Shown piece by piece: positions 7,001-37,872 of a stretch of 37,999 bases of DNA. Position 1 is the stretch's first letter, and every line of letters begins with the position of its first letter. The notes under the pieces are model-generated. The model was not told the DNA's origin, searched no databases, and was given only the letters and a program-made list of their open reading frames with translations. Origin of the DNA: Sediminibacterium sp. Gen4 (GTDB taxonomy: Bacteria > Bacteroidota > Bacteroidia > Chitinophagales > Chitinophagaceae); NCBI GenBank assembly GCA_013391385.1, contig JACBFI010000033.1, positions 1 to 37,999 on the forward strand, given 5' to 3'. Made by a program: the position numbers and the translations under genes.

Positions 7001-10000
7001 AGCGACTGGTAATACCACTATTTGTCCATCTTCAAAAGTAACTCTATCGATTGCAACAGTTGGTACAGCTTATCAGTGGTATTTGAACGATGAGCCTATT
7101 CAAGGTGCTAACGCTGCTACTTATCAAGCGGGTGCAACAGGAGCTTACTCTGTTGGGGTAACAGTTGATGGTAACATTCAAATATCTGCACCAATTTCTG
7201 TTACGGTTGTTGATAATGTACCACCATCGCCAAATGTGGCTACTTTACCAACATTGAACTTATCAGCTCCGGTAACGATTACCAATTATCCAACAGCATC
7301 TGATAATTGTGTAGGAACTGTTACGGCTACCACTAATAGTCAACTGACCTTTACACAAAGTGGTACTTACAATATTGTTTGGACTTACAATGATGGTAAT
7401 GGTAACACTTCAACTCAAACACAACAGGTAGTGGTGGTGAGAAATGATGTAACTCCGCCGGTACTCAATAATTTACCATCTAATGTTACTGTGAATTGTT
7501 CTGCTGTTCCTTCAGCACCTGTTGTTACCGCAACTGATGATTTTGATGGAAATGTTGCTGTAACATTCACTGAAACCACTACACGTAGTGCAGATATTTA
7601 CAGTGCAGCGCATTATAATTATACCATTACCAGAACATGGTCTGCAACTGATGGTTCTAATAATACAACCACTGTTTCCAGAACCATTACTGTTGTAGAT
7701 GACCAAGCTCCTGTATTTGGAACGATTAATAATATCAATGTGCCAACTGCAGCGAATGCAGCAGGTGCCAATGTTAGCTACAGCATTAATGCCAGCGATG
7801 CTTGTGGTAGTCCGGTTGCTTATACCTATAATATAGTATCAGGTTCCTTCTTCCAAATTGGAACAACCACTGTACAGGTTACAGCTACTGATGTAAGTGG
7901 AAATACTGCAAGCGCCAGCTTCACCGTAAAAGTGTTTGATAACCAGGCACCTACCATTACCGCACCAGCAAACATCACTGTGAATACCGATGCGGGTGTT
8001 GCTGTTGCAACAGGTGTAGATATTGGAGAAGCCATTGCAAATGATAACTCAGGGTCTGGAGTAGTGATTACTAATAATGCACCTACTCAATTCCCACTTG
8101 GAAATACAATAGTTACTTGGACTGCAAAAGATGCAGCAGGTAATTCAGCCAGTGCTACACAAGTGGTGACTGTTAGAGATATGGAGCCACCGGTACTTGT
8201 TGTCCCTGCAGCTGTTACCACTACTACCAATAGTAGTCAGGCTTTTGCTACCAATGTTTCATTGGGTAGCGCAAGTGCAACAGATAACAGTGGCTTCGCC
8301 GCCGTTACCAATGATGCACCTAATCAGTTCCCGATTGGACAAACCACTGTTACCTGGACTGCGACTGATGCTGCCGGAAATAAAACTACAGCTACACAAT
8401 TCGTAATTGTTGAAGATAAAGAAGCGCCTGTACTGGTTGCTCCATCTAACTTAACTGTTCCTACAAATCCGGGTGTCAATTTTGCAACAGGTGTTAATTT
8501 AGGTACTGCCAGTGGTTATGATAATAGTGGACAGGCAGTACAAATAAGTAATGTTGCGCCATCAGTGTATCAATTGGGCCAGAATCAAGTGATTTGGAAC
8601 ATTACGGATGCTTATGGTAATACAGCTACGGGCATACAGATCATTACAGTTGTTGATACAGAAAAACCTTTGATTGCAGGTGTTACTGATATAGTTGTAG
8701 ATGCGCCTATTGGTTCGAATACTGCTACTGTATTGTCATTGGGTACACCTACTGCTACTGATAATGTTAATGTAGTTTCTTTCGGTAACAATGCTACCGG
8801 TACTACTTATCCAATTGGTACCACTTCGATTATTTGGACTGCTAGAGATGCAGCAGGGAATGAAACTACGGCTGTTCAATTGGTCATCGTTCGTGATAAA
8901 ACAGCGCCTGTGCTCAATGGGGTTCCTGCCAATACAACAGTAAGTTGTGGTAACATTCCATCAGTAGCCGCCGTAACCGCTTCAGATAACTTTGATCAAA
9001 ACGTAGTTGTATCATTTACTCAATCATCTACCAAAGGCAGCAATCCTGCACAGGCTTCGTTCTATAATTATGTCATCACCAGAACTTGGTCTGCTTCGGA
9101 TGTTGCAGGTAATCAAGTATCGGCTAGTCAAACAATTACTGTAGTTGATACAGAAGCTCCGGTAATGCTACAACCGATCAATATTGCCACCAACAGCGCT
9201 GCAGGAATGTGTGGAGCTACCGTTAACTATACGGTTACAGCAACAGACAATTGTGGAAGCCCGATTACATATACCTATAGCCAGGCTTCCGGAACTGTAT
9301 TCCCTGTCGGAATCACTACAGTAAATGTTACAGCAACAGATGCCAGTGGTAATAGTGTATCGAGAAGCTTTACCGTAACGGTAACAGATAATCAACTGCC
9401 TTCGATCACTGCCCCTGCGAATGTGAATGTAACATTTGGAACAGCCGTTAACTTAGGTACTCCAGTTGCTTCTGATAATTGTGGAGTTCCGGTGGTAACC
9501 AATAATGCACCTGCTACATTCCCATTAGGTGTAACCGTAGTAACTTGGACTGCAACGGACGCTGCAGGAAACAAAAACACTGCTACTCAAACAGTAACAG
9601 TAGTGCCACTGGCTAATTGCTCCAGCAGTATCACGGCTATTCCTGAAAACAATACTTATACAGGTGGTATTCCAACCAATATCTACTTAGGTTATGGTCC
9701 TCAACGTGTAACATTAAGGGCAAATGCTTCCGGTGGAGTTTCTTACACGTATAATTGGACAGTTGTTTCAGGTAATGCAACCTTGAGTAGTACTACAAGT
9801 AGCCAACCAGTATTTGCGCCAACTCAGGCAGGTACCTATACATTTGAGGTTTCTGTGAGAACGCAAGCGGGTTGTGTGTCTAAGAGCCGAATTACAATTT
9901 GTGTAAGAGATATCAGGGTATATGATTCAAAAGGACGTGATACCAAGAAAGTTTATGTTTGTCATAGACCTCCGGGTAATCCATCAAATGTTCAGATTTT

Positions 10001-31953: not shown

Positions 31954-32027
31954 CGGGACGTAGCGCAGCCCGGTAGCGCGTTTGCATGGGGTGCAAGAGG
32001 TCGCTGGTTCGAATCCAGTCGTCCCGA
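31954..32027 (+). tRNA. tRNA-Pro (GGG)
   Basis: A 74-nt cloverleaf with acceptor arms CGGGACG/CGTCCCG, anticodon loop ATGGGGT giving GGG, and GGTTCGAATCC in the T arm. CCA is not encoded. Its 3' half is the probable integration site of the element that follows. Confidence 0.96.
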
Positions 32028-32032
32028 CAGAG

Positions 32033-32172: not shown

Positions 32173-33303
32173 ATGGGTATCAAAAATCAAAAAGGAACAG
32201 TTTCCATAGAAAACTATAGGGAACGTATAAGGATTAGATGGAGGTATCAGGGTATTAGATATGCTTTAAACCTCTTAGCATATACAAAGGCTAATCTTAT
32301 ACACGCAAGAAAAAAAGCCTCTGAAATTGAACTGGATATGGCACTAGGTTGCTTTGATAGTTCTCTAGCTAAATACAAGGGAATTTCATCAACGGTTACC
32401 CCTAAAATGGGTTTTACTGAGCAATATGAGGCATGGGTAAGGGATTATATGAACATGGATTGCGAAGTAAATACTAATTATAATGCATTCAGAAATATGA
32501 TTCGTAAATGGGGTGAAGTAAATGAGCAGAATGTAATAGTAAAATTCAATAGTGAACAGTTTTGCGTTGGTACTTACAATAGGAGGTTAACAATGCTCAA
32601 AACCTATGTAAAATGGCTTGTTAAATCTGGTATTTGGAAGAATAACCCTGTAGAGGATGTTCAGCCTAGAAGGGGTAAAAAGCTGCCTAAGCCTAAAAGA
32701 AAGCCATTTACTGAGGAAGAAATAAAGAAAATACTAGAAGCATTTAAAAATGATACTTATTGCCCTAAATCGTCAAGATATAAGCATTCTCACTATTACC
32801 CATTTATATACTTCATATTCAAAACAGGTGTAAGAAATGCAGAGGCAATTGGATTGAGGGTTGGGAAAATTAATTTGGATAAAAAAATAATACTAATAAA
32901 TGAAGTTCTAGCTCGTTCTCTAAAAGGGAGTAGTTCTAATCAACGGAGAAGAAAAGAAACAAAGAATGGGAAGGAAAGAACTTTACCCCTTACAAATGAT
33001 TTATTAGAACTTCTAAATCCATTGATACAAGGTAAAAATTTAGATGATTTAGTGTTTAAATCTATTAATGGATTACCTATAGATGATAATAATTTGCAGA
33101 AAAGAGTATTCAAGCCTATTTTAAAAGAGTTGGGTATAGAGGAAAGGGTTTTATATGCTTGTAGACACACATTTGCTAGCAGGTGTATTCAAAGTGGAAT
33201 ATCTCCAGTTAATACAGCTTTTTTAATGGGTAATAATCCCGAAACGACTTTAAGGAACTATACACATCAAATAGATACACCTAATAATCTCCCAATCATT
33301 TAA
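32173..33303 (+). CDS. Tyrosine recombinase/integrase
   Basis: A 376-residue phage-type integrase. Residues 1-70 form a basic arm-binding region, about 80-165 a SAM-like core-binding domain, and 180-376 the catalytic domain. The catalytic Arg is R221 in TGVRNAEAIGL, lysines K264/K267 lie on the expected hairpin, R331 is in YACRHTFASR and the nucleophile is Y363 in LRNYTH. The usual first His of HxxR is Y328, and the His/Trp of the LGH block is N354 (LMGNN). It faces away from tRNA-Pro, the usual orientation for a tRNA-integrated island. The start ATG lies inside a GGGTATCAAA direct repeat. The next gene overlaps its stop by one base. Confidence 0.94.
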   Translation: MGIKNQKGTVSIENYRERIRIRWRYQGIRYALNLLAYTKANLIHARKKASEIELDMALGCFDSSLAKYKGISSTVTPKMGFTEQYEAWVRDYMNMDCEVNTNYNAFRNMIRKWGEVNEQNVIVKFNSEQFCVGTYNRRLTMLKTYVKWLVKSGIWKNNPVEDVQPRRGKKLPKPKRKPFTEEEIKKILEAFKNDTYCPKSSRYKHSHYYPFIYFIFKTGVRNAEAIGLRVGKINLDKKIILINEVLARSLKGSSSNQRRRKETKNGKERTLPLTNDLLELLNPLIQGKNLDDLVFKSINGLPIDDNNLQKRVFKPILKELGIEERVLYACRHTFASRCIQSGISPVNTAFLMGNNPETTLRNYTHQIDTPNNLPII

Positions 33304-34108: not shown

Positions 34109-34192
34109 ATGAAAAATAAATCACCTCCAAGAATATATGTAATAAAAGTTAGAAAAATCAATAATAACTATTTAAAAAAAATAAAAAAATGA
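34109..34192 (+). CDS. Possible 27-residue basic small ORF ahead of the helicase
   Basis: ATG at 34109 opens a 27-codon frame ending in TGA at 34190-34192, which overlaps the helicase ATG (ATGA). The predicted peptide begins MKNKSPPRIYVIKV and is very rich in lysine. AAGG lies a few bases before the ATG. Such an overlap is typical of coupled genes, so it could be a leader peptide or a remnant of an excisionase-like gene; the AT-rich setting also makes chance possible. Confidence 0.35.
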   Translation: MKNKSPPRIYVIKVRKINNNYLKKIKK

Positions 34193-35694
34193 GTATAGAT
34201 AATATAGTAAAAGAACATAAAATCTCTGAACCGATATCAGCTGAATTAATAATTAATGAAATTAATAATGATTCTTCAAGTAATGATGTTACAGTCAATC
34301 AAGTAGAAGACTGCTCAGTTAGTTTAAGGAGTATTAATACAATCCTGACAGATTTATTAACACACATAAAAGCAAAAACCCCACAGGAAGCTGCAGGTAT
34401 TGAAGCTGGAACACCATTAGATGATAAAGCGAAGACCGTGATAACATGTGAATACGTACTTAGAGTGGCACAAGAACAAAAATGGAATTTAGCTAGATAC
34501 ATGGAAGATTATTATGTATTTAACGGGGAGTTCTGGGTGAAACTGAAAGAAGAAGAAATTAAAGACTTCCTGGGATTTGTGGCTCAGAAGATATCAATAA
34601 ACAGATTTAAGGCTCAGTATTTCGCATTTCAGGATGTTTTGCTTAAACAGTTTTATCGTACAGGATTTCTTAAGGTTCCTGAATCAAATAAACATCAAGT
34701 AAAAATAAATCTATGTAATGGTACTTATGTAGTTGATGGTAATAACCATTATTTAAAGCAGTTTGATAGTAATGATTTCATGCGTTATAAACTTCCCTTT
34801 AGGTATGATAAATATGCAGAAGCTCCTTTATTCCAAAGATACCTTGATAGAGTATTACCTGTGAAGGAAAAGCAGATGGTTTTGGCAGAACATATAGGAT
34901 CAGCATTCATTAAGAATTCAGTTTTAAAACTAGAGAAAGCTGCTTTTCTTGTAGGCTCAGGAGCAAATGGGAAGAGTGTATTTTTTAATATTATCACAAG
35001 CCTCCTTGGATCGGAAAATGTAAGCAACATTACTCTTGAGGAATTAACTGATGATAAGAATTATGCAAAAACATTCTTGGATGGTAAGATTTTAAATTAT
35101 GCTAGTGAGATATCTACGAAAATGAATACTACACAGTTTAAGACTTTGGTATCAAATGAGCCCATAATGGTGAGAATGATATATGAGAAACCCTATATCC
35201 TAGAAGATTATGCGAAACTCATATTCAATGCTAATGAGCTTCCAGCTAACATAGAGCATAATATAGCATTTCTTAGAAGATGTAATATAATAGAGTTTAA
35301 TGTCACTATACCTGAAGCCCAAAGAGACCCAGCTTTAGCAAATAAGATAATCTCCCAAGAATTACCTGGTGTTTTCAATTGGGTATTAGCAGGAATGGAA
35401 AGGCTTCTAAAAAATCAGTCGTTTACAAAATGTAAAGAGATTGAAGATGCCTTATATACTTACCAAAAGGAAAGTGATCATGTGGCATTATTTTTAGAAG
35501 ATTATAATTATATCAAATCCTCCACAGAGAAAATACCATTGAAAATTTTATATGATCATTTCAAAATTTATGCTAAGGATTGTGGTTATCCATTAGTGCA
35601 GGATAAATCATTTTCAAAGCGACTTAAGGCAAATGGTTATTATACTGAAAGAAAAGGTTCAGGAAGGTATGTGTATGCCACTAAGCGAAAATAA
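34189..35694 (+). CDS. Phage/plasmid D5/P4-family SF3 helicase
   Basis: A 501-residue replication protein. About residues 90-230 fit the D5_N region, and the SF3 helicase core has Walker A GSGANGKS (256-263), the Walker B region around KILNYASEIS (about 300-308) and the sensor block LIFNANELP (about 344-352). The C-terminal part (after about 430) is the winged-helix-like D5 end. There is no archaeo-eukaryotic primase domain at the N-terminus, so it is helicase-only. It probably opens the element's DNA for replication or excised-state maintenance. It starts with an ATGA overlap with a small ORF. Confidence 0.9.
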   Translation: MSIDNIVKEHKISEPISAELIINEINNDSSSNDVTVNQVEDCSVSLRSINTILTDLLTHIKAKTPQEAAGIEAGTPLDDKAKTVITCEYVLRVAQEQKWNLARYMEDYYVFNGEFWVKLKEEEIKDFLGFVAQKISINRFKAQYFAFQDVLLKQFYRTGFLKVPESNKHQVKINLCNGTYVVDGNNHYLKQFDSNDFMRYKLPFRYDKYAEAPLFQRYLDRVLPVKEKQMVLAEHIGSAFIKNSVLKLEKAAFLVGSGANGKSVFFNIITSLLGSENVSNITLEELTDDKNYAKTFLDGKILNYASEISTKMNTTQFKTLVSNEPIMVRMIYEKPYILEDYAKLIFNANELPANIEHNIAFLRRCNIIEFNVTIPEAQRDPALANKIISQELPGVFNWVLAGMERLLKNQSFTKCKEIEDALYTYQKESDHVALFLEDYNYIKSSTEKIPLKILYDHFKIYAKDCGYPLVQDKSFSKRLKANGYYTERKGSGRYVYATKRK

Positions 35695-35790: not shown

Positions 35791-36573
35791 ATGAAACAAA
35801 CGAATATTCAGTGGACTGATTCCACAGTTAATTTTTGGACAGGGTGCAAAAAAGTATCTGAGGGTTGTAAATATTGTTACATGTATAGGATAAAGGATAG
35901 GCAGGGAAAAATTGGATCATTTGTGAAACGCGTTAGTGATTATTCATTTTATGAACCACTCTCTTGGGAAGAGCCTATGTTGATATTTACTTGTAGTATG
36001 AGTGATTTTTTCATTGAAGAAGCTGATCCTTGGAGAAAAGATGCATGGGACGTTATAAGGAAAACACCTCAACATAAGTGGCAAATACTTACTAAGCGGC
36101 CAGAAAGAATTAAAGATTGTCTTCCTGATGATTGGGGTAACGGGTGGGATAATGTTTGGCTAGGAGTATCTGTTGAAAATCAGAAACATCTTTCACGGGC
36201 AGTGATATTAGCAGATATACCAGCCAAAGTAAAATTTATATCTGCTGAACCGTTACTAGAAGAAATTGATTTTTTAGCAGAACTTAATGGTAGTAGGATT
36301 ATAGATTCATATCACTGGGTAATACTAGGAGGAGAGTCTGGAAATGAATATGGAGAGTTTAGATATAGACCATCGGAAATTTCTTGGTATGAAAAAGCTA
36401 TCAACGATTTGCATATGCATACCTCTGTAGCCGTGTTTGTAAAACAATTGGGAAGTCATCTAAAAAAGACGATGAAGCTAAGACATTATCATGGTGGGGA
36501 TCTCAAAGAGTGGCCAACTAATCTTCAATTTCAGGAATTTCCTATATCAGATAAGGAACTTGAAATTAAGTAA
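35791..36573 (+). CDS. DUF5131 (phage Gp37/Gp68 family) protein
   Basis: A 260-residue protein of the Gp37/Gp68 family (PF07505, DUF5131). C19, C26 and C29 form a C-x6-C-x2-C cluster (WTGCKKVSEGCKYCYM), and a fourth Cys lies in FTCSMSDFF. WQILTKRPER, VWLGVSVENQ and WVILGGESG are the family's later blocks. The fold is seen as radical-SAM-like, with the cysteines probably binding an iron-sulfur cluster. In many genomes a three-Cys-motif partner (TcmP) lies next door; none is found here. The activity is unknown. Inverted repeats lie on both sides of the gene. Confidence 0.9.
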   Translation: MKQTNIQWTDSTVNFWTGCKKVSEGCKYCYMYRIKDRQGKIGSFVKRVSDYSFYEPLSWEEPMLIFTCSMSDFFIEEADPWRKDAWDVIRKTPQHKWQILTKRPERIKDCLPDDWGNGWDNVWLGVSVENQKHLSRAVILADIPAKVKFISAEPLLEEIDFLAELNGSRIIDSYHWVILGGESGNEYGEFRYRPSEISWYEKAINDLHMHTSVAVFVKQLGSHLKKTMKLRHYHGGDLKEWPTNLQFQEFPISDKELEIK

Positions 36574-36888: not shown

Positions 36889-36957
36889 AATACCCCCTGT
36901 AAGTTTATTGTCAGTCAGAGTTACCCCCTATAGGTTTATTCTGACTGACTATTTTTT
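36889..36957 (+). terminator. Direct repeat with embedded terminator hairpin
   Basis: TACCCCCTGTAAGTTTATT (36891-36909) and TACCCCCTATAGGTTTATT (36922-36940) match at 17 of 19 positions. GTCAGTCAGA (36910-36919) pairs with TCTGACTGAC (36940-36949), followed by ATTTTTTC. The second direct copy sits in the hairpin loop. It could end a short transcript just ahead of the structured segment. Confidence 0.7.
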
Positions 36958-36990
36958 CAGGCTATTAATAGTGCTTTCCCTTTATTTTAA

Positions 36991-37378
36991 ATTTATTGTG
37001 CTTCCAACTAAAGCCGAGCACCTGTAATAGTCATTTGGGCTGTAGAATAAAGCCAAGCAGGGAGATAGGTGTTCATTCTACACAGCTACCCTATAAAAAA
37101 ACACGCCAATTATCCATAGGAGTAATTGTCATGGTTTTTCCTTTGCTACAGTGTATCTGAACTCCACTAACTGATGTGTATTTGACAATCCACGTTAGTT
37201 CCTCCATTGGCAGCCACCTGCCAGGTCAATTACTGCGTTCAGGCTTCCTTTCACAAAGCTGCCCTTATAACTACGTTATGCTATACAGGAAACCTTCACT
37301 GTGCAAATACCGCATTTTCAATGCTTTACTATTTGCCCCAGAATTTCCCATGGCTGCTTTGGTGGCGTTTTTTTGTCA
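36991..37378 (+). ncRNA. Candidate structured noncoding RNA, about 390 nt
   Basis: The 915-base gap between 36574 and 37488 has no credible gene, yet this part is less AT-rich than its surroundings and dense in nested complements. A 5' unit has CACCT/AGGTG (37019-37023/37067-37071) interleaved with TGTAGAAT/ATTCTACA (37041-37048/37075-37082), a possible pseudoknot. A long-range stem, AAAAAAA-CA-CGCCA (37094-37108) with TGGCGTTTTTTT (37363-37374), closes the rest. Inside are TGGCAG-CCAC-CTGCCA (37208-37223), ATAAC/GTTAT (37267-37279), ACTAAC/GTTAGT, and a nested arm of GGAAA/TTTCC, GCAAATA/TATTTGC and GCATT/AATGC (37288-37348). It ends in a T run. No known RNA class (RNase P, tmRNA, 6S, group I/II intron) was recognised. 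The strand and ends are inferred. Confidence 0.55.
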
Positions 37379-37488: not shown

Positions 37489-37872
37489 ATGTGGCATAGA
37501 ATCATTGATTGGTTTGGAGAGGTTCGTGAAAGATATAACCTTGTAAGAGATTTCAATAAGTCAGCAAAAAACTCATTTATTTCTGGTCACGCCCCAACAT
37601 TGTTAGAGGCAAGGATAACAATGGGTTCATCAGAATTTAGGCATGCATTTTCCAAATTTATGGGAGGTGGATTTAGAATAAAAGCATTGTCTGGACACCC
37701 ACTTGAGAAAAGTGAGTTAATCGAAATAGGCAAGGTTGTTTTAGATAATGAAGAGTTAGTAAGGAAATTAGTTGCTCTTGGCTGGGACACTCTAGAAGTT
37801 CATGATTTAAAAGGGTTTCATGGATGCAAATGGGGGTTAAAGAATTATGCAAAAATTGGAGGTTATCTGTAA
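37489..37872 (+). CDS. Small cargo protein of unknown function
   Basis: A 127-residue soluble protein without signal or membrane segments. The N-terminal helix MWHRIIDWFGEVRERYN is amphipathic. A middle block (HAPTLLEARITMGSSEFRHA, then FSKFMGGGFRIKALSG) and a C-terminal one (LVRKLVALGWDTLEVHD, then GFHGCKWGLKNYA) look well structured and conserved in kind. I have a loose memory of similar proteins in Bacteroidota accessory regions, without a known function. It lies 110 bases behind the structured noncoding segment, in the same direction. Confidence 0.8.
   Translation: MWHRIIDWFGEVRERYNLVRDFNKSAKNSFISGHAPTLLEARITMGSSEFRHAFSKFMGGGFRIKALSGHPLEKSELIEIGKVVLDNEELVRKLVALGWDTLEVHDLKGFHGCKWGLKNYAKIGGYL

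What the first reader, a model, noticed from the sequence alone, without database searches (positions are those of the whole stretch)
36991..37378. Dense nested inverted repeats suggest an unknown large structured RNA on the element
This ORF-poor stretch stands out from its AT-rich surroundings. It has a 12-pair closing stem with a 2-nt bulge (37094-37108 with 37363-37374), a tetraloop hairpin (37208-37223), a three-step nested arm (37288-37348, 17 pairs), and a 5' unit with two interleaved helices (37019-37082). These nest consistently, unlike chance repeats. None of the motifs of RNase P, tmRNA or introns was seen. The ends and the function are unknown.
Basis: partly seen in the sequence, partly recalled or inferred. 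Interest (0 to 1): 0.75.

Follow-up and report, generated by a model that had tools for sequence, protein, structure and literature searches.

The report
Mobile folded non-coding DNA unit
The stretch is one copy of an apparently undescribed family of non-coding units that turn up at unrelated places in related bacterial genomes and keep their base pairing while their letters change; whether they work as folded DNA or as RNA is still open.

Summary
Homologues occur in 22 of 394 sampled genomes of the family (13 of 101 genera). In the 3' domain 25 of 30 pairs show two-sided changes among 25 distinct copies (covariation 0.535; slid controls at most 0.121). Sixteen copies not used for the model repeat this (25 of 30; 0.472 against at most 0.131). 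Rfam holds no match at its cut-offs.

Relatives show a discrete unit of about 600-700 nt (about 400 in the window). Copies 80-99.5% alike within one genome lie between different flanks, so the unit moves. Neighbours include ssb, ArdC, relaxase, restriction and Cas9 genes.

G-T wobbles are rarer on either strand (0.5-3.3%) than in tRNAs (9.4%), which leans towards DNA; conserved loops lean towards RNA. A strand signal in the first set did not repeat in the second. I favour a mobile folded-DNA unit, possibly working during conjugative entry; a large structured RNA is nearly as likely.

The parts
36965..37367 (.). The folded unit as defined by homology with G131 (72% over 424 aligned columns)
37217..37348 (.). 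3' domain, the part shared by all 42 copies studied; 30 modelled pairs, 25 with two-sided changes in each of two sets
37228..37345 (.). Closing helix of the 3' domain: 37228-37231 and 37233-37235 with 37339-37345
37242..37294 (.). Arm 37242-37249 with 37287-37294 (7 of 8 pairs standard in the window; C37244 opposite A37292)
   Evidence: sequence
37267..37279 (.). Hairpin 37267-37271 with 37275-37279
37303..37336 (.). Hairpin arm 37303-37309 with 37330-37336, with inner hairpin 37312-37316/37320-37324
37108..37127 (.). Hairpin 37108-37112 with 37123-37127
   Evidence: 5 copies; 2 of 5 pairs with two-sided change; A-C in 2 copies at one pair
37103..37368 (.).
31954..32028 (+). tRNA-Pro, likely integration target of the element that carries the unit (inferred from the adjacent integrase)
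32173..33303 (+). Tyrosine integrase, homologous to the integrase of the G131 locus (8e-158)
34189..35694 (+). P4-type primase/helicase
35791..36573 (+). DUF5131 protein
37489..37872 (+). Conserved 127-aa protein; neighbour only: 0 of 34 loci of its relatives hold a copy of the unit

Best explanation
A family of non-coding, non-autonomous mobile units whose body is kept as a base-paired fold. Full-length members run from about GGTAAA..GG to CC..TTTACC (620-700 nt); the window holds a shorter form. Shown: conservation, covariation, discrete units with different flanks within one genome, location beside mobile and defence genes. Inferred: the fold acts as DNA, most likely as one single strand, and it is made when the host element passes through a single-stranded stage. 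The working model is an Frpo/ssi-like site: hairpins in the strand that enters a new cell give the host polymerase or a primer a start, upstream of entry genes such as ssb; copies spread to further genes. The enzyme that moves the unit is unknown.
For: Covariation in two sets of copies. Units 80-99.5% alike in one genome with different left flanks (G628 three copies, G655, G470, G1103, G1098 two each); contigs break at or in the unit (G628 C5 and C29, G470 C193, G547 C7 and C10). Pairs change between Watson-Crick types with few wobbles on either strand: second set G-T 6, A-C 9, Watson-Crick 380; tRNA control 20 G-U in 213 pairs; Fisher p 0.0002 for the second set. The complement of the unit's + strand folds better in 9 of 9 units with RNA and with DNA parameters. 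ssb genes near 4 of the 42 copies (L080a, L083, L086, L142), 4 of 4 on the unit's + strand; relaxase beside L084. Next gene co-oriented in 26 of 38 copies where it could be judged (4 of 42 could not; by eye; binomial p 0.034).
Against: The wobble test is weak: the helices were first drawn on one copy with perfect pairs, and the control is 10 tRNAs. On an RNA-rule fold of 17 whole units the G-U share is 9.8%, like RNA, though those rules favour G-U. The strand asymmetry of the first set (A-C 21 against G-T 3) did not repeat in the second (9 against 6, p 0.61). The next gene is convergent in 12 of 38 copies. ArdC is on the opposite strand in 3 of 3 loci (L085, L086, L100). No empty site was found, no target duplication was seen, and no promoter consensus was shown in the stems. 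In most loci no conjugation gene was identified.
Confidence: 0.4

Rival explanations
1. A new large structured RNA family (400-700 nt), carried by mobile islands, in the manner of other large bacterial RNAs found there (OLE, ROOL, GOLLD; recalled). The transcribed strand would most likely be the complement of the unit's + strand.
For: Covariation; loop and junction letters are better kept than stems (alignments); the complement folds better in 9 of 9 units and in the window has z -2.79; unpaired positions of that strand are 63% purine; pooled A-C 30 against G-T 9 over both sets (p 0.001); G-U share 9.8% in the RNA-rule fold.
Against: The strand asymmetry did not repeat in the second set and is only 17 against 7 (p 0.064) in a strand-neutral choice of stems on 13 units. 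Wobbles are 0.5-3.3% against 9.4% in tRNAs. No conserved promoter was noticed outside the unit's ends (by eye). No Rfam family matches.
Confidence: 0.38
2. An integron-like or rAID-like recombination site between small cassette genes.
For: In G357 (L059) the copy follows two tandem tyrosine recombinases; in G339 (L060) four full or partial copies, all on +, lie between small co-oriented genes. rAID systems are defined by a tyrosine recombinase, co-oriented short genes and conserved intergenic motifs (PMC12247911, passages).
Against: No tyrosine recombinase related to those of L059 or the window was found by phmmer in the ORFs of the other 12 context loci searched then (L079-L090), apart from a 13.6-bit match in L058. 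Most copies are single, not in arrays.
Confidence: 0.06
3. A mobile self-splicing or ribozyme-like element, or the remnant of one.
For: Discrete ends that can pair with each other, mobility, large fold; one copy (L084) lies directly in front of the end of an open frame that I take for a coupling-protein gene (by eye; Pfam has no match for it).
Against: No group I or group II match in Rfam. Joined flanks of 15 copies gave no recognisable interrupted gene; 3 of 15 have short frames of 62 to 77 residues across the join, which were not searched further. Copies are mostly intergenic.
Confidence: 0.08
4. Chance fold or a decayed gene.
For: The + strand fold of the window is not unusual (z -0.94).
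Against: homologues in 13 of 101 genera; lengths of the 3' domain vary freely from 125 to 140 nt in the first set, unlike a frame.
Confidence: 0.01

Closest known systems
Frpo / ssi single-stranded-DNA promoters of conjugative plasmids (F, ColIb-P9)
   Same: Folded non-coding unit of a few hundred nt, more than one copy, next to ssb in some loci; folded single strand proposed as the active form (passages of PMC11541004; sizes and copy numbers of F and ColIb-P9 are recalled).
   Different: No sequence comparison with Frpo was made; no -35/-10 pattern shown; next gene convergent in 12 of 38 copies; ArdC on the other strand in 3 of 3; different bacterial group.
Miniature inverted-repeat elements (MITEs)
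   Same: Non-coding, discrete ends that are roughly inverted repeats, several places per genome, no transposase inside.
   Different: The interior is kept as a fold by selection; no related transposase, target duplication or empty site found.
Large structured bacterial RNAs of mobile elements (OLE, ROOL, GOLLD; recalled)
   Same: Size, strong covariation, conserved loops and junctions.
   Different: No Rfam match; no transcript known; wobble share low; copies with different flanks.
rAID intergenic motifs / integron attC sites
   Same: Structured or conserved intergenic sequence beside small variable genes and, in G357, tyrosine recombinases.
   Different: Recombinases were not found at most loci searched; mostly single copies; no comparison with rAID sequences was possible.

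Membership tests
Any Rfam 15 family | Score at or above the gathering cut-off | tested here: not met
   Window whole: only 4 tRNAs; 14 loci with copies: only 3 tRNAs; permissive scans: none for the window (E up to 5) or L083 (E up to 2), one chance miRNA match of 18.8 bits against a cut-off of 70 for L089
Structured RNA | Compensatory pair changes | tested here: met
   equally expected of folded DNA
Structured RNA | Strand-specific G-U wobbles | tested here: inconclusive
   A-C 21 against G-T 3 in the first set, 9 against 6 in the second, 17 against 7 strand-neutral
Structured RNA | Transcript | not testable with these tools
   no expression data
Frpo/ssi single-strand promoter | Upstream of and co-oriented with entry genes | tested here: inconclusive
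   ssb co-oriented 4 of 4; next gene co-oriented 26 of 38; ArdC opposite 3 of 3
Frpo/ssi single-strand promoter | Promoter hexamers inside a paired stem | not tested
   only looked at by eye; no count made
Frpo/ssi single-strand promoter | Transcription from single-stranded DNA | not testable with these tools
   bench test needed
MITE | Discrete non-coding unit at unrelated sites | tested here: met
   right flanks missing for L082, L084, L090 and the right end of L080b is cut short
MITE | Terminal inverted repeats, target duplication, related transposase | tested here: inconclusive
   ends roughly inverted; no duplication seen by eye; no transposase family tied to it; no empty site
Integron attC / rAID site | Tyrosine recombinase at the locus and cassette array | tested here: not met
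   met at G357 and partly at G339, G131 and the window; not met at the other context loci searched; L100-L154 were not searched for it
Group I or II intron | Rfam match and interrupted gene | tested here: not met

The most novel reading that the evidence does not exclude
A new class of mobile genetic unit: a transposing piece of folded single-stranded DNA, without any gene, that gives newly entering conjugative DNA a start site for transcription or priming, and that has been copied in front of entry and defence genes across one bacterial family.
Probability: 0.2. Interest if true: 0.85.

Novelty: new variant of a known kind. Interest (0 to 1): 0.6.

Why it matters
A fold kept by selection over a mobile non-coding unit is unusual. 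If it is DNA, it would be a candidate single-strand promoter or priming site in a bacterial group for which I found none described (the one paper on such promoters that I searched holds no word beginning with Bacteroid). If it is RNA, it is a new large RNA family. Either way, 42 aligned copies make the question directly testable.

Tried and rejected
Link to the 127-aa gene downstream: rejected; 0 of 34 fetched loci of its relatives hold a copy (blastn, best E 0.013 and not upstream; cmsearch, none at E up to 1). Phages and plasmids: no blastn match with the window stretch or with the G357 copy. IMG/VR pattern scan: two hits, both inside coding sequence, taken as chance. Other copies in the window's own genome: none. 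Of 6 of 396 genomes matched, two (G060, G210) were dropped because the two-sequence profile did not confirm them. Class sample: 2 of 395 genomes, both of the window's genus, at low sensitivity because only 8 candidates per genome were scored. Own genus: 2 of 41. Genus of G628: 6 of 35. Genus of G655: 1 of 10. Empty site: 8 of 35 genomes matched, but no match spans a junction; 6 of the 8 match their own flanks and G1090 and G1102 match 63-66 nt of one flank. Early idea that the - strand is proven by wobbles: withdrawn after the second set. Literature: searches listed no paper that describes such units; most subscription journals are not held. The 2019 rAID paper is not held, so what I say of it beyond one search is recalled.

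Full report
What was given. The window is the whole contig C28 of a 3.5 Mb genome; it ends in what looks like an insertion-sequence end that occurs at or near other contig ends. The stretch lies in an element next to tRNA-Pro, behind an integrase, a P4-type primase and a DUF5131 gene, and before a 127-aa gene. No call names the organism; relatives of the 127-aa protein are mostly titled Bacteroidetes, and I take the family to be Chitinophagaceae (inference).

Fold of the single sequence. The + strand is no better than shuffles (16 of 100 as good); the complement is (0 of 100). G+C is 0.414 against 0.292 and 0.200 on the two sides.

Homologues. The stretch is single in its genome. A DNA search of 396 genomes of the order matched 6 at E 0.001 or better. 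A two-sequence profile confirmed G131 (full length), two copies in G357 and four full or partial copies in G339, all on + in their loci, and did not confirm G060 and G210. A covariance model of the 3' domain (R1, 5 sequences) found 12 of 394 family genomes. A second model (R2, 18 sequences) found 22 of 394, in 13 of 101 genera, 6 of 35 in the genus of G628, 1 of 10 in the genus of G655 and 2 of 395 in a class sample (low sensitivity: 8 candidates scored per genome). R1 found 2 of 41 in the window's genus.

Covariation. First set: 26 copies, 25 distinct; 25 of 30 pairs with two-sided changes, 164 such cells, 88.5% of cells paired, score 0.535; six slid versions reach at most 0.121 and 45% paired; 0 of 500 shuffles reach the score. 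The alignment was fitted to the model and 18 of the 26 copies built it. Second set: 16 copies not used to build R2; 25 of 30 pairs, 95 cells, 86.5% paired, score 0.472; slid versions at most 0.131. One of the 16 (L140) comes from a genome, G470, that gave two copies to the first set. The fold is therefore real.

Which helices. In the window the supported ones are 37228-37235/37339-37345, 37242-37249/37287-37294, 37267-37271/37275-37279, 37303-37309/37330-37336 and 37108-37112/37123-37127.

A discrete moving unit. Within single genomes, pairs of copies are alike over about 600-690 nt and then stop: 99.5% and 94.9% (G628, three copies), 91.8% (G655), 93.2% (G470), 80.6% (G1103), 91.0% (G1098); 80.7% over 332 nt in G1085. 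Left flanks differ in each pair shown. Right flanks differ for G1103 and G1098; they are cut off by contig ends in L082, L084 and L090, L080b is shortened, and in G357 the two copies share the gene behind them. The ends read roughly GGTAAA..GG and CC..TTTACC and can pair with each other. No empty site was found. Joined flanks of 15 copies gave no recognisable interrupted gene; the L084 copy lies directly before the end of a frame that I take for a coupling-protein gene, which Pfam does not recognise.

Neighbours. ssb at L080, L083, L086 and L142, on the unit's + strand in 4 of 4. ArdC at L085, L086 and L100, on the opposite strand in 3 of 3. Relaxase at L084, type I restriction at L087, MotA and OmpA proteins like Zorya (recalled) at L139, IS110 at L086, a group II intron RT at L090, Cas9 at L149, DUF4365 with a dynamin-like GTPase at L152, a GMT-wHTH protein at L145 followed by DUF5131, a methyltransferase at L151. 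DnaJ-like genes at L147 and L154 score below Pfam's cut-off, and the similar gene at L148 has no match. These were chosen because they looked familiar, so they are not a census. The next gene is co-oriented in 26 of 38 copies, convergent in 12; 4 of 42 could not be judged (by eye on simple ORF calls; p 0.034).

DNA or RNA. In the first set the + strand shows 3 G-T and 21 A-C cells beside 625 Watson-Crick. A-C on + is G-T on the other strand, so I first took the complement as the active strand. The second set does not repeat this: 6 and 9 beside 380. Stems chosen without regard to strand on 13 of 17 whole units (4 near-identical ones dropped) give 17 against 7, p 0.064. Wobble shares on either strand, 0.5-3.3%, are below 9.4% in 10 tRNAs, which speaks for DNA; but the helices were first drawn on a copy with perfect pairs, and a fold of 17 units by RNA rules gives 9.8%. 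The complement folds better in 9 of 9 units tested, and its unpaired positions are 63% purine. I call this unresolved, with DNA slightly ahead.

Comparison. Passages of PMC11541004 describe Frpo as a promoter formed by folded single-stranded DNA, found next to ssb and anti-defence genes on the transferred strand; the resemblance is in kind, and no membership test could be passed. Passages of PMC12247911 define rAID by recombinase, co-oriented genes and conserved intergenic motifs; G357 and G339 resemble that, most loci do not. No Rfam family fits.

Verdict. A new family of mobile folded non-coding units. The structure is shown; mobility is well supported; DNA against RNA, the moving enzyme and the function are inferred.

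Noticed in passing
L057:8947-9217 and L059:8137-8419: A second conserved stretch of about 270-280 nt with hairpin-like repeats lies between the recombinase gene(s) and the unit in G131 and G357; a profile of the two finds it in no other locus held then, nor in the window.
   Followed up: partly
L086:10392-11396 and L090:1422-2891: An IS110 transposase gene and a group II intron reverse transcriptase lie about 0.3 and 0.6 kb beyond the left end of a unit; both kinds of element are said to favour hairpins (recalled), so the unit may attract them.
   Followed up: no
L060:6573-7178 and 9216-9821: Two near-identical 201-aa genes bounded by CGCCTTGGTTCGTGGCACACGAAACAA-like ends, which look like Y1 (HUH) transposases (by eye; no Pfam match); one interrupts a partial copy of the unit.
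   Followed up: partly
window 37489-37872: A 127-aa protein without Pfam match above its cut-off, NCBIfam, PHROG or PADLOC match, with 32 relatives at 45-86% identity in a genome collection and 2 in viral contigs; the next frame in the window is cut short by an insertion-sequence end.
   Followed up: partly
window 36891-36940: Two near-copies of TACCCCCTnTAnGTTTATT within an inverted repeat with a GTCAGTCAGA/TCTGACTGAC core, like an insertion-sequence end; G131 has a similar GTTACCCCCT stretch before its unit.
   Followed up: no
L139:8888-9026: The copy in G035 sits between a gene cluster with radical-SAM-like and ABC-transporter-like genes and a Zorya-like pair (MotA_ExbB, OmpA).
   Followed up: no
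L149: A copy lies about 0.35 kb before a cas9 gene on the same strand; whether tracrRNA or an array is near was not checked.
   Followed up: no
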